Source: Methanobrevibacter sp. (lineage in GTDB: Archaea > Methanobacteriota > Methanobacteria > Methanobacteriales > Methanobacteriaceae). Taken from it: a stretch of DNA of 24,263 nt. The number at the start of each line of letters is the position of its first letter. The stretch's first letter is position 1. Below the pieces are notes generated by a model that was not told the DNA's origin, did not search any database, and was given only the letters and a program-made list of their open reading frames with translations. The DNA lies in NCBI GenBank assembly GCA_009784145.1, contig WRCI01000004.1, forward strand, positions 1-24,263. The letters are read 5' to 3'. Below are positions 1,910 through 23,626 of this stretch, one piece after another. Both the position numbers and the translations under genes were made by a program.

Positions 1910-2665
1910 ATGAACATTACATTAAGCCTTGAAAAAACAATAAGTTCTGATGTTTCAATTATGGTTGATGCTTTTAGAGCTAGCACAAGTATTATTATAG
2001 CTATGAATGAGTTTAACGAAGTTATTCCTGCATTTTCACCAGAAGAAGCTATTGAAATAGCTAAAAAAGAAAATGGAGTCCTTGCAGGAGAACGAATGGG
2101 TGCTACCTTAGAAGGATTTGATATTGGAAATTCGCCAGTAGCTATTAAAAATTATACTAGTGAAAAAAAGAAATTAGTTTTAACAACAAGTAATGGAACA
2201 CGAATATTGAAAAATATGAATTCTACTGTTTTAATTGGAGCATTTATAAATGCTAAATCAGTAGCTAAGCTAGCTATTGAAATAGCTAAAAAACATGATT
2301 ATAATCATATTGATGTTGTGATGGCTGGGTGGAAAGGAAGTTTTGCAATTGAAGACTTTTTAGCTAGTGGTGAGATATTATACTGGATTCAAAATGAATT
2401 GAGTCAAAGTGCAAAATTTGATAATAGAGATAACAATACTAATAAAGATTATAATTCAGAAAATAAAATTAGTGAATATGCTCAAAGTGCAATTTTAGCT
2501 AATAATGATTATGAAGCTGTTAAAAAAGTTATTTATAAATCTAGAGCTGGCAAAGGTTTAAAAAAATTAGGATTTGAAAAAGATATTGATTTCAGTATCC
2601 AAAAAAATATTTCTAGTAATGTGGCTATTTATGAGAATGGAGTTTTAAAACTCTTTAATAAATAA
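1910..2665 (+). CDS. comB: 2-phosphosulfolactate phosphatase (ComB)
   Basis: ComB hydrolyses (R)-2-phospho-3-sulfolactate to sulfolactate, the second step of coenzyme M synthesis from phosphoenolpyruvate and sulfite, in the cytosol. Family signatures visible are VDAFRAST (residues 19-26), AGERMGATLEGFDIGNSP (59-76), LTTSNGTR (91-98) and MAGWKGSFAIEDFLASG (138-154), followed by the typical C-terminal AGKGLKKLGFEKDIDF stretch. At 251 residues it is somewhat longer than usual; the excess is an Asn/Lys/Asp-rich insertion at about residues 170-187. The ATG start has no clear Shine-Dalgarno sequence; the N-terminus MNITLSLEK fits family starts. It sits about 16 kb from comC-comD-comE, and its partner comA is not in the window. 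Identification is firm from family motifs. Confidence 0.95.
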   Translation: MNITLSLEKTISSDVSIMVDAFRASTSIIIAMNEFNEVIPAFSPEEAIEIAKKENGVLAGERMGATLEGFDIGNSPVAIKNYTSEKKKLVLTTSNGTRILKNMNSTVLIGAFINAKSVAKLAIEIAKKHDYNHIDVVMAGWKGSFAIEDFLASGEILYWIQNELSQSAKFDNRDNNTNKDYNSENKISEYAQSAILANNDYEAVKKVIYKSRAGKGLKKLGFEKDIDFSIQKNISSNVAIYENGVLKLFNK

Positions 2666-16821: not shown

Positions 16822-16864
16822 TTATTAGATAGAATAAATTATTGATTAGATAAAAGGTGTGTTC

Positions 16865-17893
16865 ATGAAAATAACTACTAAAAATGAAAAATCACTTATT
16901 TTAAATATCTTAAAAAAATTAGGTTTAAGTGATGAATATGCTGAAATCGTAGCTGAAGCTACTTTAGATTCAGATTTAAAAGGTTTTACTTCTCATGGAA
17001 TTGGAAGATTCCCTCAATACATTCATGGAATTGAAAAAGGAAAAATCAATATTAATCATGAAATAGAAATTGTGAAAGAAACTGAAGCTATTGCTTTAAT
17101 AAATGGTAAACATACCTTTGGTCAAGTAGTTGCTTATAAAGCTATGATGTTAGCTATTGAAAAAGCTAAAAAAATAGGAATTGCAGCAGTAGGAACACAT
17201 GAAGCAAATCATTTTGGAGTTACTGGATATTATTCTGATTTAGCTATAAGAAATGATGTTATTGGAATTGTTATGGCAAATACTGAACCTGCAATTGCAC
17301 CTCTTGGAGCTAAAACAGCTTTAATAGGAACCAATCCAATTGCAATAGGAATTCCTTCAAATGAAACTTATATTGCAGTAGATATGGCAACTTCTGTTAC
17401 AGCTAGAGGAAAATTAATGGAAGCCAAAAGAAAAGGAGAGCCGATTCCTGAAAATATGGCTTTAGATAAGGATGGAAATCCTACAACCGACCCTAGTGAA
17501 GCTCTTGAAGGATCAATATTACCATTTGGTGGTTACAAAGGATATGCACTAGCTTTTATGATTGAACTTTTAACTGGTCCTTTAGTAAATGCTGCATTTG
17601 GATCAGGTGTTCATGGAACAGCTAATCATACACAACTTTGTACTAAAGGAGACTTATTTATAGTTATAGATCCTTCAAAATTTGTAGGTATGGATAAATT
17701 TAAAGGAGAAACAGAAGAATTTATTAAAGAAGTTCGAGGAAGTGGAGACACTATTATCCCAGGAGATCTCGAAGTCGAAAGCATTCAAAAAAACTACAAA
17801 GAAGGATTAAAAGTTGATGAAAAACTTTATAATAATTTAAAAGAAATCTGTGATAATTTAGATATTAATATTGATGAATATATTTCACAGTAA
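16865..17893 (+). CDS. comC: L-sulfolactate dehydrogenase (ComC), Ldh2/MDH type
   Basis: ComC oxidises sulfolactate to sulfopyruvate with NAD(P) in coenzyme M synthesis. The protein is of the Ldh2/YlbC fold, with SHGIGRFPQYIHGIEKG (about 41-57), THEANHFGVTGYYSDLA (about 114-130), ANTEPAIAPLGAKTALIGTN (about 138-157), VDMATSVTARGK, and FGGYKGYALAFMIELLTGPL (about 221-240). Length 342 matches ComC of Methanocaldococcus (MJ1425, from memory). On sequence alone malate dehydrogenase of the same family is possible; placement directly before comD and comE favours ComC. I choose the ATG at 16865, five bases after AGGTG; the GTG at 16859 belongs to that ribosome site. Confidence 0.9.
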   Translation: MKITTKNEKSLILNILKKLGLSDEYAEIVAEATLDSDLKGFTSHGIGRFPQYIHGIEKGKININHEIEIVKETEAIALINGKHTFGQVVAYKAMMLAIEKAKKIGIAAVGTHEANHFGVTGYYSDLAIRNDVIGIVMANTEPAIAPLGAKTALIGTNPIAIGIPSNETYIAVDMATSVTARGKLMEAKRKGEPIPENMALDKDGNPTTDPSEALEGSILPFGGYKGYALAFMIELLTGPLVNAAFGSGVHGTANHTQLCTKGDLFIVIDPSKFVGMDKFKGETEEFIKEVRGSGDTIIPGDLEVESIQKNYKEGLKVDEKLYNNLKEICDNLDINIDEYISQ

Positions 17894-17971
17894 TGTTATC
17901 ATTATAGTTTTTCTAATTTTTATTTTTTTATAATATTTTTTCTTATTTTACATAAATATGATTATATAATG

Positions 17972-17980
17972 TATATAAAT
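17972..17980 (+). promoter_or_regulatory. TATA box for comD-comE
   Basis: TATATAAAT lies in the 145-base comC-comD gap and predicts transcription start near 18000, inside the repeat structure at 17981-18029. It suggests comDE can be transcribed separately from comC. Confidence 0.5.
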
Positions 17981-18029
17981 ATTAATATCTTATTCACACT
18001 AAAAGATATTAATTATTCACACTATAAGA
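17981..18029 (+). promoter_or_regulatory. Operator-like repeats at the comD promoter
   Basis: TTATTCACACTAAAAGA (17990-18006) recurs as TTATTCACACTATAAGA (18013-18029), one mismatch in 17, with a 23-bp period. An 11-bp inverted repeat ATTAATATCTT / AAGATATTAAT (17981-17991, 18003-18013) brackets the first copy with an 11-base loop. The elements cover the predicted transcription start and end ten bases before the GTG start. This suggests a repressor site or a leader structure; function is inferred. Confidence 0.6.
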
Positions 18030-18038
18030 GGTTATCAA

Positions 18039-18530
18039 GTGGACAGTACTGAAGCAGTTTATCAAGGACTAAAATCAGCAGGAATTAATTTTATTGTTAG
18101 TGTTCCTTGTATTAATTTAGGAAAACTTCTTGAAATTATTGATAATGATGATGAAATCATACATGTTCCAGTTACAAGAGAAGAAGAAGGAATTGGAATA
18201 TGTGCTGGTGCTTATTTTGGAGGTAAAAAAACAGCAATTTTAATGCAAAATTCTGGACTTGGGAATTGTGTCAATGCATTGGGATCTCTTTTTCAATTAT
18301 ATTCTTTGCCTTTAGTTATGATAATGAGTCACAGAGGAACTGAAGGTGAGCCTATCGTTGGACAAGTTCCAATGGGTAAAGCTACTCCAAAAGTCCTAGA
18401 AGCTTTGGAATTAAAATACATTAATCCAAAAACTCCAGAAGAAGCTAAAAAAATTATAGCTAATTCTTGGAAAACATCAGTTGAAGAAAAATCACCAATT
18501 TCAATATTATTGGATATTAATTATTGGTAA
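18039..18530 (+). CDS. comD: Sulfopyruvate decarboxylase subunit alpha (ComD)
   Basis: ComD is the Pyr-domain half of the thiamine-diphosphate enzyme that decarboxylates sulfopyruvate to sulfoacetaldehyde. The sequence opens [20 protein letters not shown], has the conserved glutamate region [20 protein letters not shown] (about 47-66), [20 protein letters not shown] (about 71-90), and [20 protein letters not shown] (about 101-120). Length 163 is normal for the split archaeal form. GAGGTTAT ahead of the GTG at 18039 supports that start. comE follows after 47 bases and encodes the other subunit. Confidence 0.95.
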
Positions 18531-18577
18531 ATAATTAAAATAGAGTTACCTTTATTATTTTATTAGGAATTGTTAAA

Positions 18578-19207
18578 ATGGAACGTTTTGATGGAATAAA
18601 AAATATAATGGAATACATTAATGATGAAATCATAATTTGTAATATAGGATTTCCATCAAGAGAACTTTATCAAATAAAAGATAGAGCTAAAAACTTTTAT
18701 ATGTTAGGGTCTATGGGACTTGCTTCTTCTATTGGATTAGGATTAGCTATGGCAAAAGAAAATAATGATGAAAATAAAAAATTTTCTAAGTTATTAAAGA
18801 TAACTGATGAAAATAAAAATAATAATAATAATAATAAAAATAACTGCGAAAAAATCATTGTTTTTGATGGGGATGGATCTGTTTTAATGAATATGGGTTC
18901 ATTAGTTACAATATTCAATCAAAGCCCAAAAAATCTTATTTTAATTGTTTTTGATAATGGATGTTATGGGTCTACTGGAAATCAATGCACTTATGCAGAA
19001 AATATAAATCTTTTGGAAGTAGCTAAAGGTATTGGGTTTGAAAATTGTTATAACTGCGAAGATATTGATTTTGGAGAGATTTTAAAAAAAGATCAAGAGA
19101 ATTCTATTTTTATTCATTATAAAATCCTCCCCGGCAATGCAGATTCTCCAGTAATTGATATGTCTCCTGATGAAATAAGAGATAGGTTTTTAGATACTAT
19201 AAAATAA
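18578..19207 (+). CDS. comE: Sulfopyruvate decarboxylase subunit beta (ComE)
   Basis: ComE is the thiamine-diphosphate-binding half of the ComDE enzyme. It has the glycine-rich start of the PP domain [16 protein letters not shown] (44-59), the cofactor signature [14 protein letters not shown] (96-109) and [14 protein letters not shown] (123-136), with the Mg-binding GDGS at 98-101. Residues about 61-90 are a Lys/Asn-rich insertion with a run of six Asn between the two conserved blocks. Length 209 versus the usual about 185-190 is explained by that insertion. The AGGAATTG ribosome site precedes the ATG. It closes the comC-comD-comE run. Confidence 0.94.
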
Positions 19208-19259: not shown

Positions 19260-19739
19260 TTAGTCATGATATCTTGGATAAGGTCCTTTTCCATCTTCTC
19301 CATAAATTTTACCATCTATTGCACCAATAAAGATATAATCTCTGTATTCATCATATGCGAAAAATAAAGGTATTTTATATAACATTTTACCGTTAACTTC
19401 TATTAATATTGGGTTTCCTGTGATTTCAATAATATAATCAGGGTCTGGGAACTCATAATCTAAAATATCCCGAGCTATTTGTTTAGCTCTACTTTTACTA
19501 ATATATTCTTGTTCTACTTGGGGTTTAGATTCTGAAACATTTTTTATCTGGGAAACATTATTGTTTACAACAAGTTTTTCCTCAGATTTATCTTGATTTA
19601 AAGTTAAAAAAGCATAAGTAGCAAGTACAGAAGTAATTACTATTAAAATAATGATAATTATTAATAGAATTTTTTTATTGTTACTGCTTTTAGCATTATT
19701 ATCTGTTCTAGAATTTTCACCTTTTTCTATTTTAGCCAT
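19260..19739 (-). CDS. Single-pass membrane protein with PepSY-like outer domain
   Basis: The protein has a short basic cytosolic tail rich in Asn/Ser (1-22), one membrane helix at about 23-46 (KKILLIIIIILIVITSVLAT), a linker, and an outer domain (about 75-159) beginning EYISKSRAKQIARDILDYEF and ending FIGAIDGKIYGEDGKGPYPR. The pattern of an ISKSRAKQIA helix followed by strands and a xDGKIYGEDG turn resembles PepSY domains, which often inhibit or regulate proteases, but the match is not certain. It lacks the zinc ribbon of its upstream neighbours. GGTGA seven bases before the ATG fixes the start. It is the last gene of the minus-strand membrane cluster. Confidence 0.8.
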   Translation of the reverse strand: MAKIEKGENSRTDNNAKSSNNKKILLIIIIILIVITSVLATYAFLTLNQDKSEEKLVVNNNVSQIKNVSESKPQVEQEYISKSRAKQIARDILDYEFPDPDYIIEITGNPILIEVNGKMLYKIPLFFAYDEYRDYIFIGAIDGKIYGEDGKGPYPRYHD

Positions 19740-19854
19740 TGAAAATTCACCTTATTTTTTAATTCTTTTATATGAAAAACCATATCCTACTGCATAAATA
19801 GTTCTGCTTTGAATTTAAAAGAAGCAATATAATTATAATTTAAGTTAAATATAT

Positions 19855-20616
19855 TTATAACTTTAAATTATCAATTGTGTTTATTAACTTATTAATATAA
19901 TCAAGAGTTATTTCACTTGATTCGTACATATAAGTTTCATAAATCAATGTGGGAGTGCCTGATTGCATAATAGGAACTGTGACATAATTTGGACTTGTTT
20001 GAGACATTGGATAATAGTAAAGCAAAGGAGGAATTTTAGCTATAATTTCATCAGCTAAAACTTTAGATTTATAATCATTTAAAGGAGCAAAAATAAAATT
20101 AGTTTCATCATAATTACCTCCCTGAGTACCTTGATTAGAATGAATATCAATGACCAAATTATAATTTTTAGAAGTAGCATCAGGAACAACAAATTCGTTA
20201 GCTAATAGTTGACCATTCATCCTACCCACATTATAATCATCAGGGCTATCTGTAACAGTAATCTTATAAATATAATAAGAATAATTTAAAGAATCAGATT
20301 TAACTTTTAGAGAATCATATAATGCATTATGAACATTAGATTCTAATGGATGAACTCCAATAATATAAGCTATTTTTACATTTGAATTTTTATTGCCAAT
20401 AGGACCAATAAGGTCAACTGTTCCTTTATTATTTGAACCTAAATTAACAGTATTGAATCCATTGAAGATTGTATCAATTATATTACTGTCACTATCATTA
20501 TTGACATTATTATGACTATCCTCATTATTAGCATTAATAAAAATATTGAAAACTAATAACCCTAATAATATTGTCAATAAAACTATGACTAGTATAATTA
20601 TTCTTCTTAATCTCAT
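19855..20616 (-). CDS. Membrane-anchored M14/AstE-like zinc peptidase candidate
   Basis: A basic start MRLRR and membrane helix (about 6-27) are followed by an Asn/Asp-rich stalk (28-60). The outer domain (about 65-253) shows a pattern like zinc carboxypeptidases or AstE/AspA hydrolases: IIGVHPLESNVH with HxxE (H89, E92), GRMNG with R132, VIDIHSNQG giving the third zinc ligand H159, and PTLIYETYM with E227 as general base. The protein would be held by its helix facing the pseudomurein wall; a peptide-crosslink target is inference. No family name can be assigned with confidence. The start ATG overlaps AGGATG and has a poor Shine-Dalgarno sequence. Confidence 0.8.
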   Translation of the reverse strand: MRLRRIIILVIVLLTILLGLLVFNIFINANNEDSHNNVNNDSDSNIIDTIFNGFNTVNLGSNNKGTVDLIGPIGNKNSNVKIAYIIGVHPLESNVHNALYDSLKVKSDSLNYSYYIYKITVTDSPDDYNVGRMNGQLLANEFVVPDATSKNYNLVIDIHSNQGTQGGNYDETNFIFAPLNDYKSKVLADEIIAKIPPLLYYYPMSQTSPNYVTVPIMQSGTPTLIYETYMYESSEITLDYINKLINTIDNLKL

Positions 20617-20650
20617 CCTAATCTATTTCCATTAATAAGAATTTATAATT

Positions 20651-20702
20651 TCTAAAAAATCCTTATTTATAAATTCTAAAAAATCCTTATTTATAAATTC
20701 AA
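20651..20702. repeat. 24-bp direct repeat between membrane-cluster genes
   Basis: TCTAAAAAATCCTTATTTAT plus AAAT occurs at 20651-20674 and 20675-20698, with a partial third copy after it. It lies in the gap upstream of the M14-like gene. Confidence 0.8.
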
Positions 20703-20725
20703 AAATTCTTTTTTTTCATGATTCC

Positions 20726-21460
20726 TTACCAATTTATACTTGAAGGAAGTGAACCACTTTCAGATCTTATTATAACTATAGCAAAAGCTAGTATAAGTCC
20801 TTCATAACCAAAATCAGGACTTCCTGCAACAACAATTCCTGTGTAATTAGGAGCTCTACCATGATTATCCATCCACCTATAAGTTCTTTGTGCCATATCC
20901 ACATATTGTGATCTAGTAAGAGATGAAGTACTCACACCATATAATGGATTATCTGGAGAGGCAAAAGATCTAAAGTTAATATTACCACTATCACCCCTAT
21001 TTTTCATATCAATAGCTTTAGAAAAAATATAAAGACACTGTGGTCTTGTAAGTGTGACTCCTTTATAATGAATAGAAGAAGAAGGATTAGCACTATATGC
21101 TACTGCAAGACCATAAACTGCAGATAAAGGAATACTTGAACTAGTAACAGTATCAAGATTACTATTAGAATTTAAATTAGCATTATCGCCATTATTAAAA
21201 ACATTATCATTATTATTGTTATCATTGCTATTACTGTTATTATCATTAAATAACACGAAAGAAGATACTCCTACAATAGCTATAGCTATTACAAGCACTA
21301 TAGCAATAGCAATTAAGAGTTTTTCATTATTTTCACTACCCTCAGAACCCTCATTTATATTTTGTAAATTTGATAGTGAAGTTCCACAGTTTTGACAAAA
21401 TTTCGAGTTTCTAGTATTTTCTGTTCCACAATTTGGACAATATTGTAATAAAATAAACAT
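20726..21460 (-). CDS. Zinc-ribbon membrane protein with pseudomurein-binding-like repeats
   Basis: Residues 8-25 form a zinc ribbon (CPNC, CQNC; C8, C11, C22, C25), then a membrane helix at about 48-71, an Asn-rich stalk (72-103), and an outer region of about 140 residues. That region contains LTRPQCLYIFSKAI (137-150) and LTRSQYVDMAQRTYRWMDNHGRAPNYTGI (181-209, here interrupted only for description), which match the pattern of pseudomurein-binding repeats (helix, then GrxPNYv, then helix). It ends in a partial repeat, SGSLPSSINW. It probably sits in the membrane and grips the wall. A strong AAAGGAGG lies only one base before the ATG, which is too close; the true start may be the downstream ATT or another unusual codon. 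Confidence 0.82.
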   Translation of the reverse strand: MFILLQYCPNCGTENTRNSKFCQNCGTSLSNLQNINEGSEGSENNEKLLIAIAIVLVIAIAIVGVSSFVLFNDNNSNSNDNNNNDNVFNNGDNANLNSNSNLDTVTSSSIPLSAVYGLAVAYSANPSSSIHYKGVTLTRPQCLYIFSKAIDMKNRGDSGNINFRSFASPDNPLYGVSTSSLTRSQYVDMAQRTYRWMDNHGRAPNYTGIVVAGSPDFGYEGLILAFAIVIIRSESGSLPSSINW

Positions 21461-21520
21461 GCCTCCTTTAATTTTTATTTATATGTGAAAAATTATTTAT
21501 TTGTAAAAAAGCATTAAATT

Positions 21521-22105
21521 TCATAAATCTTTTGTTATTTTCTCAACAATCTCATGTCTATTAGATATTTCTTTATCAAAGTCAACCATTATGTAATCAT
21601 TTCCATTAGCAATATTATAAGCATAGTAATTCATATTTTGTATTGTATAAGTTTCTTTTCCATTAATTTTAGTTTCAGAAACACCTAAATATTTTGCAGC
21701 AGTAGTTTGATAAACATACTCATACAAACCAGTATTTATTAAAGCACCTTTACTAACGAGTATTCGAATTTCATTTCCTTCAGAATTTTCAAAATTGTAT
21801 TGTTTCCCACTAACAACTATTTCAGTGCCAGAAGCTTTAAATTCTGAAGGAACATTAAATTTATAACCTTCAATAAATTCTGCATGAGTATCTGGAAAAG
21901 CTAGGTTAATTACTAAAACAGCAAGAACACAAGTTAGAACAACAACAATCAGAGGTAAAATAAATTTTTTATGTGATATTATGAATTTATTTTGTGTAAA
22001 ACTTTCTGTAATATTTTGTGATTTTCCACAATCTGGACAAAACTTATCATCTTCATCTAATTTTCCCCCACATTTACTACAAAAAATTCCTTTTTCATCT
22101 TCCAT
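21521..22105 (-). CDS. Zinc-ribbon single-pass membrane protein, 194 aa
   Basis: The N-terminus has the zinc ribbon CSKC/CPDC within FCSKCGGKLDEDDKFCPDC, then one membrane helix at about 46-66 (ILPLIVVVLTCVLAVLVINL). The outer domain (about 70-194) starts FIEGYKFNVPSEFKASGTE and resembles small alpha/beta outer domains of methanobacterial zinc-ribbon proteins; the fold is not identified. I choose the ATG at 22105 rather than the TTG at 22114, since the sequence then begins MEDEKG right before the ribbon and the upstream TTTGG is a poor start context. It is related to its neighbours in architecture but not in its outer domain. Confidence 0.82.
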   Translation of the reverse strand: MEDEKGIFCSKCGGKLDEDDKFCPDCGKSQNITESFTQNKFIISHKKFILPLIVVVLTCVLAVLVINLAFPDTHAEFIEGYKFNVPSEFKASGTEIVVSGKQYNFENSEGNEIRILVSKGALINTGLYEYVYQTTAAKYLGVSETKINGKETYTIQNMNYYAYNIANGNDYIMVDFDKEISNRHEIVEKITKDL

Positions 22106-22205
22106 TAATACCAAACCCTTAAACTTAATAACAATTCTCTAAAACTGATAATAATTACTTAAAATTAATAACAATTCCTTAAATTGATATCAATTCATTA
22201 AAATA

Positions 22206-22820
22206 TTAATAGTATTCATATACTTCCAAATTCCAATATTGTAACTCATAAGCTGAAATATATACACGATAAGTTCCAGAACCTGAAAATTCAATAGTGT
22301 CAGACTTTGTAGCTACTGCACTTTTACTATTCCATGACAATTGAGAAGATCCAATAGTATTACCATTTTTACTAACAGTTGTATACATAAAATTGTCAGC
22401 ATAGTTTTTAATTGGCATAGCTGATGGAACAACTTTCATCCTATTTCCACCACCATTTATAGTAACGATATAATCGCCAACCCCATTGAATGAATCAATT
22501 TTATGCCAAGTTTTAGTATTTACATTAGAAGAATCACTAACATAGCTATTAGAAACACCATCAACAGAACTACCACCATTATTACTAATATCTGAATTAT
22601 TGTCATTATTATTTAAACTAACAAAAGCATAAGTTCCAACAATAGCAATAACTATCAATAATGCTACAATTACTCCAATTAATATTTTTTGATTATTTCC
22701 CCCTATAACCTTATTATCAGAGTTTATCTCATGTATTTCTGATAATTTTTTTCCACAACTTTTACAAAATGTAGAATTGTCATCATTCTCTGCTCCACAA
22801 TCTTTACAATATTTTGGCAA
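22206..22820 (-). CDS. Zinc-ribbon single-pass membrane protein, 204 aa
   Basis: It opens MPKYCKDCGAENDDNSTFCK with zinc-ribbon cysteines at about 5, 8, 19 and 22, a linker, a membrane helix at about 46-65 (KILIGVIVALLIVIAIVGTY), a Ser/Asn/Asp stalk (66-98), and an outer beta-rich domain from about 100 (TWHKIDSFNGVGDYIVTING) ending YWNLEVYEYY. No enzyme motif is visible; a ligand-binding beta-sandwich is plausible. The start is TTG at 22820, eight bases after AGGAGGG; an upstream TTG at 22841 would put the ribosome site itself in the coding frame. It is the first gene of the five-gene minus-strand cluster. Confidence 0.82.
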   Translation of the reverse strand: MPKYCKDCGAENDDNSTFCKSCGKKLSEIHEINSDNKVIGGNNQKILIGVIVALLIVIAIVGTYAFVSLNNNDNNSDISNNGGSSVDGVSNSYVSDSSNVNTKTWHKIDSFNGVGDYIVTINGGGNRMKVVPSAMPIKNYADNFMYTTVSKNGNTIGSSQLSWNSKSAVATKSDTIEFSGSGTYRVYISAYELQYWNLEVYEYY

Positions 22821-22841
22821 AACAATAACCCTCCTTTTCAA

Positions 22842-23194: not shown

Positions 23195-23626
23195 CTAGTA
23201 ATTAATCATTTTTTCAGCTATTGTAAATCCATTTCCAATCATTACTGCAATTTTTTTATCTAAATCGTCTGTAATGTCAATTTGATAAACAGACATGTTT
23301 CTGCCTTTGTTTAGGCATTTTGACTTCGAAAAAAGAATACTTCCTTTTGTACTTTTAAGATATGATATAGTACAGGATTGACTAACAGTGGCACCTACAA
23401 TAGATCCAGAAAAATTATCTACATTAGCATGTAACCCAAATGTAAAATCAGCAAGAGTGAAAATAGCTCCCCCATGAACATTAACTGCTGCATTTTTGTG
23501 AATATCTTTGATTTCCATGCTGCATTCAACAGAATCTTCAGATATTGATTCAATTTTAATTCCTGCAATTTCTGCAAACTTATCTTCGGAAAAAAACCTT
23601 TTTATATTGTCTATATCTATTTTCAT
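23195..23626 (-). CDS. PaaI-family hotdog thioesterase
   Basis: This 143-residue protein has the single-hotdog PaaI pattern: IKDIHKNAAVNVHGGAIFTL (about 39-58) with the conserved HGG, then ADFTFGLHAN with the catalytic Asp equivalent, a SCTISYLKSTKGSILFSKSK strand pair, and NMSVYQIDITDDLDKKIAVM near the end. PaaI-type enzymes hydrolyse aryl- or acyl-CoA thioesters; the archaeal substrate is unknown. GAGGA six bases before the ATG supports the start. It is transcribed from its own promoter, with a TATA-like TTTATATATC about 27 bases upstream, and is separated from the TPR gene by about 155 bases. Confidence 0.92.
   Translation of the reverse strand: MKIDIDNIKRFFSEDKFAEIAGIKIESISEDSVECSMEIKDIHKNAAVNVHGGAIFTLADFTFGLHANVDNFSGSIVGATVSQSCTISYLKSTKGSILFSKSKCLNKGRNMSVYQIDITDDLDKKIAVMIGNGFTIAEKMINY

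What the first reader, a model, noticed from the sequence alone, without database searches (positions are those of the whole stretch)
19260..22820. Five-gene cluster of single-pass membrane proteins facing the pseudomurein wall
Five consecutive minus-strand genes each have one membrane helix and a distinct outer domain. Three begin with a double-CxxC zinc ribbon on the inner face. One outer domain looks like pseudomurein-binding repeats, another like an M14/AstE zinc peptidase, another PepSY-like. Zinc ribbons that stay inside while the outer part differs suggests a shared inner partner and a diversified outer sensing or wall-remodelling set. Architecture is seen; the joint function is inference. 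This is the strongest candidate in the window for an undescribed system.
Basis: partly seen in the sequence, partly recalled or inferred. Interest (0 to 1): 0.72.

Follow-up and report, generated by a model that had tools for sequence, protein, structure and literature searches.

The report
Wall-trimming membrane module of methanogens
Five neighbouring genes of a methanogen encode predicted single-pass membrane proteins, and their core pair, a pseudomurein-binding-repeat protein followed by a predicted zinc peptidase, recurs side by side in relatives from two families, where it likely trims the archaeal cell wall.

Summary
The five minus-strand genes are real. Each has one predicted membrane helix; P3, P4 and P5 carry zinc ribbons; P3 has a pseudomurein-binding repeat (PMBR) over Pfam's cut-off. 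P2 belongs to an M14/AstE-like family that Pfam misses, with conserved HxxE / DxH / E / R residues, matched in 148 of 151 genomes of the phylum. P1 being PepSY is only weakly supported.

The whole set is not conserved: the other four genomes of the genus lack it, and in one the flanking genes are neighbours. The core is conserved. P3 is directly followed by a P2-type gene in 8 of 25 Methanobacteriaceae genomes with full-length P3 (5 genera), and P5 lies upstream in 8 of 25. In a second family, 7 of 8 genomes have zinc-ribbon gene > PMBR gene > M14 gene, a few small genes from pseudomurein biosynthesis cluster B.

A 2025 pangenome paper lists a pseudomurein-specific 'Zn peptidase' of unknown function at that place; eight paper searches found nothing on the operon. 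Best reading: a membrane-anchored module that trims pseudomurein stem peptides, its zinc ribbons likely docking on an inner partner. The wall link is likely; the bond cut and the roles of P1, P4 and P5 are inference.

The parts
22206..22841 (-). P5: zinc ribbon + one helix + outer beta domain (likely start TTG near 22820)
   Evidence: (outer domain pLDDT above 90 in most blocks)
22743..22811 (-). zinc ribbon of P5
22623..22685 (-). predicted helix of P5
21521..22114 (-). P4: zinc ribbon + one helix + ~120-aa outer domain of no Pfam family (possibly PsbP-like, not shown)
22022..22084 (-). zinc ribbon of P4
21902..21964 (-). predicted helix of P4
20726..21460 (-). P3: zinc ribbon + one helix + pseudomurein-binding repeat region
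21374..21442 (-). zinc ribbon of P3
21254..21316 (-). predicted helix of P3
20843..20929 (-). PMBR match PF09373, residues 178-206 of P3
19855..20616 (-). P2: one N-terminal helix + M14/AstE-like domain
20539..20601 (-). predicted helix of P2
20341..20352 (-). HxxE motif of P2 (H89, E92), predicted zinc ligands
20140..20142 (-). H159 of P2, predicted third zinc ligand
19936..19938 (-). E227 of P2, predicted catalytic residue
19260..19739 (-). P1: one helix + outer domain without known relatives, weakly PepSY-like
18578..19207 (+). flank: comE-like gene (label recalled)
23195..23626 (-). flank: thioesterase-like gene (label recalled); next to the comE-like gene in G004

Best explanation
The five genes are a lineage-specific version of a conserved gene module of pseudomurein-walled archaea whose core is P3, a predicted membrane-anchored protein with a pseudomurein-binding repeat, followed by P2, a predicted membrane-anchored M14-like zinc peptidase, and the pair likely works at the membrane-wall interface, where P3 would hold the wall while P2 would trim pseudomurein stem peptides. 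Shown: the recurrence and the order P5, then other zinc-ribbon genes where present, then P3, then P2; the conserved active-site residues; the same two domains in one polypeptide elsewhere; the place beside the pseudomurein ligase cluster in a second family. Inferred: zinc binding and hydrolysis; the substrate (most likely the C-terminal residue of the stem peptide, as expected of an M14 carboxypeptidase); P3 and P2 as physical partners; P5, P4 and P1 as accessory or regulatory subunits whose inner zinc ribbons dock on a shared partner.
For: M14 directly downstream of P3 on the same strand in 8 of 25 Methanobacteriaceae genomes with full-length P3, 5 genera, chance p below 1e-10 on assumed gene counts. 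P5 upstream within three genes in 8 of 25. In family f3 zinc-ribbon gene > PMBR gene > M14 gene at 7 of 7 loci fetched, each within a few small genes of a MobA-like NTP transferase, a 395-aa protein and a double Mur ligase, the make-up that Lupo et al. give for pseudomurein cluster B (PMC11915815 section 6). PMBR region fused to M14 in 10 of 52 domains. H89, E92, R132, H159, E227 kept in 51-52 of 52. P2 relatives in 148 of 151 genomes of the phylum at E 1e-8. AstE motif alignment. Confident AF2 model, pLDDT 91.
Against: Set absent from the other four genus genomes. 17 of 25 P3 loci have no M14 next door, and 7 of 25 have none of M14, P5 or the 337-397 aa one-helix neighbour. The eighth f3 genome, G150, has no P3 match at E 1e-15 and only a distant M14 match. 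P3-adjacent M14 domains are not one clade. P2 passes no Pfam or NCBIfam M14 model; the profile match to AstE has a reported probability of only 9.6%; one relative weakly touches Amidase_3 instead (E 0.015), so an amidase is not excluded. P1 and P4 have no established family. No activity, binding or expression data; fold search unavailable.
Confidence: 0.45

Rival explanations
1. An envelope-sensing array: zinc-ribbon membrane proteins with varied outer domains relay wall state to an inner partner or to the small winged-helix regulator often found divergent to P5; P2 is incidental.
For: A winged-helix gene (HTH_45, one tested) stands upstream and divergent of the P5-domain gene or its array in 17 of 28 P5-domain loci (the profile was built from 7 of these loci). 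Shared N-terminal module of P3 and P5. Arrays of short single-helix proteins with a P5 domain behind such a regulator in G001 and G002.
Against: No such regulator beside P5 in the window. P2 and PMBR are linked by order and by fusion.
Confidence: 0.2
2. A loose collection of paralogous surface proteins that settled side by side, without joint function.
For: Genus mates lack the set and in G004 the flanking genes are neighbours. P1 is an orphan. Zinc-ribbon/helix proteins are common in the family and the genus has further zinc-ribbon matches.
Against: P3 > P2 order kept in 5 genera and a second family; adjacency far above the chance estimate.
Confidence: 0.2
3. P2 is an AstE-like hydrolase or adhesin acting on something other than the wall.
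For: Sources name relatives 'adhesin' and 'Succinylglutamate desuccinylase'; AstE profile likeness.
Against: Near-universal in the phylum, fused to PMBR regions, beside the Mur-ligase cluster. Proper AstE_AspA_cat matches occur in 141 of 151 genomes; the listed ones that I compared, such as those of G143 and G148, are at other places than the P2 genes.
Confidence: 0.1

Closest known systems
OG0000169, a 'Zn peptidase' specific to pseudomurein archaea (Lupo et al. 2025, PMC11915815; abstract, sections 5, 6, 13 and passages seen)
   Same: Zinc peptidase, exported, close to the MobA-like NTP transferase of cluster B in M. thermautotrophicus; the P2-type genes of f3 lie at that place
   Different: The sections read give it no function and mention no zinc-ribbon or PMBR neighbours; I could not read its sequence list, so identity with the P2 family is inferred from position
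Phage pseudomurein endoisopeptidases PeiW, PeiP and PeiR (search listing only)
   Same: Act on pseudomurein (their abstracts)
   Different: Phage lysis enzymes; P2 has no relative in phage records or viral contigs and carries a zinc-type motif; that the Pei enzymes are cysteine peptidases with PMBR domains is recalled
Bacterial M14 enzymes that trim peptidoglycan stem peptides, such as Csd4, Pgp1 and MpaA (recalled)
   Same: M14-like zinc motif HxxE...H...E and proposed trimming of wall peptides
   Different: No sequence match to a solved structure at E up to 10; different wall polymer; membrane anchor and PMBR partner
TcaA-type zinc-ribbon membrane proteins of Gram-positive bacteria
   Same: P3 residues 6-96 match the TcaA model weakly, E 6.3e-5: zinc ribbon followed by a helix
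   Different: 22 bits against a cut-off of 550; the match ends before the outer domain
AstE/AspA (PF24827)
   Same: GVHxxE and DxHS motifs align
   Different: Pfam's model is not passed by any of 50 relatives (3 weak hits)

Membership tests
M14/AstE-like zinc peptidase (P2) | HxxE plus later His as zinc ligands | tested here: met
   H89 51, E92 52, H159 52 of 52 domains; aligned with the AstE motifs
M14/AstE-like zinc peptidase (P2) | catalytic Glu near the C-terminal end | tested here: met
   E227 in 51 of 52
M14/AstE-like zinc peptidase (P2) | Arg binding the substrate carboxylate | tested here: inconclusive
   R132 in 51 of 52, but its role is not established
M14/AstE-like zinc peptidase (P2) | significant match to a curated family model | tested here: not met
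   so filed as M14-like, not as a member
M14/AstE-like zinc peptidase (P2) | M14 fold | tested here: inconclusive
M14/AstE-like zinc peptidase (P2) | peptidase activity | not testable with these tools
   needs assay
Pseudomurein-binding repeat protein (P3) | PF09373 over cut-off | tested here: met
   39.8 bits against 24.9
Pseudomurein-binding repeat protein (P3) | binding to pseudomurein | not testable with these tools
   needs sacculus pull-down
Zinc-ribbon membrane proteins (P3, P4, P5) | PF13240 over cut-off plus one helix | tested here: met
PepSY (P1) | PF03413 match | tested here: not met
   its counterpart in G132 passes
PsbP_2 (P4) | PF18933 match | tested here: not met
   zinc-ribbon neighbours of P3 in L212 and L140 pass; profile comparison not significant
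OG0000169 of Lupo et al. 2025 (P2 family) | position a few genes from the MobA-like NTP transferase of cluster B | tested here: met
   7 of 7 f3 loci
OG0000169 of Lupo et al. 2025 (P2 family) | sequence membership in the published group | not tested

The most novel reading that the evidence does not exclude
The module is the missing stem-peptide carboxypeptidase machine of pseudomurein: the M14 enzyme removes the terminal residue that must leave before cross-linking, P3 holds it on nascent wall, and the zinc-ribbon tails tie outer trimming to inner precursor synthesis, an archaeal counterpart of bacterial carboxypeptidase-elongation complexes built from unrelated parts.
Probability: 0.25. Interest if true: 0.8.

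Novelty: new variant of a known kind. Interest (0 to 1): 0.62.

Why it matters
How pseudomurein is trimmed and cross-linked is open: Leahy et al. 2010 state that cross-linking needs removal of a terminal residue and that none of the enzymes of pseudomurein biosynthesis had been characterized (PMC2812497, passages; some synthesis ligases have been assayed since, PMC12996149, abstract start in the listing), and Lupo et al. 2025 leave their zinc peptidase without a function (section 13). A recurring PMBR-M14 gene pair, beside the ligase cluster in one family, gives a named enzyme, a partner and a substrate class that can be tested in Methanothermobacter, for which a shuttle-vector system is reported (PMC8609365, abstract start in the listing).

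Tried and rejected
Whole five-gene set conserved: rejected; it is absent from the four other genus genomes, and in G004 the flanking genes are neighbours.

One ancient P3-M14 operon inherited once: not shown; P3-adjacent M14 domains need at least two label changes on the tree.

P4 as PsbP_2 and P1 as PepSY by profile or shuffle comparison: not established.

Fusion of P4-type and PepSY domains in the 337-397 aa neighbour of P3 (6 loci): the PepSY end passes Pfam's cut-off in 2 (L147, L151), is below it in 1 (L152) and has no hit in 3; the P4-type end aligned over 11 residues only. Dropped as evidence.

Phage or mobile origin: no P2 relative in phage records or viral contigs; no tRNA in the window; transposases were not searched for.

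P3 in genome contigs gave three loci, bacterial by title, matching the zinc ribbon only; relatives of the window's genome may be left out of that collection.

P3 and P5 profiles against solved structures: only zinc-ribbon or helix-region matches.

Papers: eight searches listed none on this operon; five papers were opened, by section or passage only; supplements could not be read.
Full report
WHAT IS THERE. The window is one whole contig (G000:C4, 24263 bases) of an incomplete genome, 65% complete, 185 contigs. Five minus-strand ORFs fill 19260-22841: P5 (211 aa), P4 (197), P3 (244), P2 (253), P1 (159) in transcription order, gaps 91, 60, 109 and 115 bases, one predicted helix each. Flanks are a convergent comE-like gene and a thioesterase-like gene (labels recalled). 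P3, P4 and P5 start with zinc ribbons over Pfam's cut-off; P3 has one pseudomurein-binding repeat over cut-off. P2 and P1 pass no Pfam family.

P2. Relatives align with H89, E92 and R132 invariant and H159 and E227 nearly so; in 52 domains from fetched loci H89 51, E92 52, R132 51, H159 52, E227 51 (domains under 140 residues, weaker than E 1e-15, or identical to another were dropped before the count, among them the split L076 and the partial L081). No Pfam or NCBIfam M14 model is passed; 3 of 50 relatives touch AstE_AspA_cat at best E 0.038 and one touches Amidase_3 at 0.015. A profile of AstE-like proteins from the same phylum (10 usable of 30 loci) aligned with the P2 family so that HxxE and DxHS meet the AstE motifs, score 26.5 against 13.5-18.0 for three column-shuffled controls and 9.2 and 11.0 for two unrelated profiles; the reported probability is only 9.6%. 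The AF2 model is confident (pLDDT 91, pTM 0.79). I call it M14-like. Sources name relatives adhesin, M14 family metallopeptidase or succinylglutamate desuccinylase; 120 of 226 hits were listed, and of those with a name one bears a bacterial one, a partial 'Firmicutes' MAG protein.

DISTRIBUTION. P2 relatives: 148 of 151 genomes of the phylum at E 1e-8, 20 of 20 genera; 120 of 138 family genomes at E 1e-18. None found in phage records or viral contigs. P3 matches at E 1e-10: 76 of 138 family genomes, of which by my reading of the list 25 hold a full-length single-pass P3; all 25 loci were read. P5 matches at E 1e-6: 104 of 138, including hits to the N-terminal module alone. P4 matches at E 1e-3: 104 of 138, in the listed part mostly through the zinc ribbon and helix; the best match over its outer domain lies in G014 and lacks the ribbon. 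P1: weak matches in 4 other genomes of 138 and none but itself in the protein database.

IN THE GENUS. None of the four other genomes has the set. In G004 the comE-like and thioesterase-like genes are convergent neighbours; in G001-G003 other genes follow the comE-like gene. A P5 relative remains in G001 (69% identity), a partial one in G002, broken pieces in G003, none in G004. P2-type domains are present in all five genomes, in the others within PMBR-bearing proteins or in unlinked short ones.

CONSERVED CORE. Of 25 P3 loci in Methanobacteriaceae, an M14 gene lies directly downstream on the same strand in 8 (window, L137, L138, L139, L140, L142, L149, L155: genera g1, g11 three times, g15, g14, g9 twice), and P5 lies upstream within three genes in 8 (window, L141-L144, L148, L149, L155); one or both in 12 of 25. 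Six more have a 337-397 aa one-helix protein next door (L146, L147, L151, L152, L153, L203), and seven have none of these (L145, L150, L154, L156, L160, L204, L205). Chance would give about 0.4-0.8% per locus for M14, from assumed gene counts. In a second family (f3, 8 genomes) 7 loci, fetched by their M14 gene, read zinc-ribbon gene, PMBR gene, M14 gene in that order, 7 of 7; the zinc-ribbon gene is split into two ORFs in L213 and L226. The eighth genome, G150, has no such P3 match and only a distant M14 match. There the PMBR protein lacks its own ribbon, and the ribbon protein carries PsbP_2 (one tested, E 2.9e-12). A third family (f2) has zinc ribbon-helix-PMBR without an M14 neighbour (L273, L274) and M14 fused to PMBR elsewhere in the same two genomes (L228, L229). 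In G132 a zinc-ribbon/4-helix protein, P5, a PepSY protein, P3 and P2 stand in a row. Of 52 M14 domains 15 are beside a short PMBR gene, 10 are in one polypeptide with a PMBR region and 27 are neither; the loci were chosen through P2, P3 and P5 hits, so these are not genome-wide rates, and the 15 are not one clade.

LINK TO PSEUDOMUREIN. At all 7 f3 loci a MobA-like NTP transferase, a 395-aa protein and a double Mur ligase follow two or three small genes away on the other strand (Pfam on one locus; the ligase is split in L213 and the transferase and 395-aa protein share one frame in L223). G133 of Methanobacteriaceae has another M14 gene one gene from the same three (L216). Lupo et al. 2025 describe cluster B with such parts, and a pseudomurein-specific exported Zn peptidase three genes from the NTP transferase in M. 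thermautotrophicus (section 6), unknown in function (section 13). G148's contig length, 1,751,377, is from recall that of strain Delta H. So the peptidase is, in all likelihood, already listed as a candidate; the PMBR and zinc-ribbon partners are what is added here.

MECHANISM. Commitment: P2 is a membrane-tethered trimming peptidase for pseudomurein stem peptides and P3 its wall-binding partner. Classic M14 enzymes remove C-terminal residues (recalled), and Leahy et al. note that cross-linking needs a terminal residue removed, with no characterized enzyme then. P5, P4 and P1 would be accessory. The shared N-terminal module of P3 and P5 (39% over about 110 residues) suggests one inner partner, untested. 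A winged-helix gene is upstream of the P5-domain gene or its array in 17 of 28 P5-domain loci, not in the window.

VERDICT. Interest 0.62.

Noticed in passing
L161:5938-8856, L162:6188-8321, L163:6245-8420: In G001 and G002 the P5 outer domain sits in arrays of four to six short single-helix proteins with similar N-ends and differing outer parts, behind a divergent winged-helix gene.
   Followed up: partly
L164, L165, L167-L172, L221: In genus g9 the P5 gene often stands between a divergent winged-helix gene and genes that I take for RNase P subunits (labels recalled), with two soluble zinc-ribbon genes of about 300 aa upstream.
   Followed up: no
L142:7748-8320: The PepSY protein of the G132 cluster ends in a DnaJ-like stretch of CxxC motifs (weak Pfam hits).
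   Followed up: no
L155 (G061:C83): The contig is an inverted duplication of the same genes, probably an assembly artefact; counted once.
   Followed up: partly
L213:5633-6330 and L226:4882-5579: The zinc-ribbon gene upstream of the PMBR-M14 pair is split into two overlapping ORFs in two genomes, one likely M. thermautotrophicus.
   Followed up: no
L216:7398-14089 (G133): An M14 gene without a PMBR neighbour sits beside the cluster B genes in Methanobacteriaceae too.
   Followed up: partly
L142:8911-9516, L140:6657-7925, L146:9037, L147:9869, L151:11012, L152:5874, L153:9223, L203:5814: Zinc-ribbon proteins with four or five helices stand near P3 in eight loci of three genera; pairwise BLAST relates them, partly through the ribbon.
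   Followed up: partly
window 1910-2665 and 16859-19207: Genes that look like coenzyme M synthesis (comB, comC, comD, comE; labels recalled) flank the finding.
   Followed up: no
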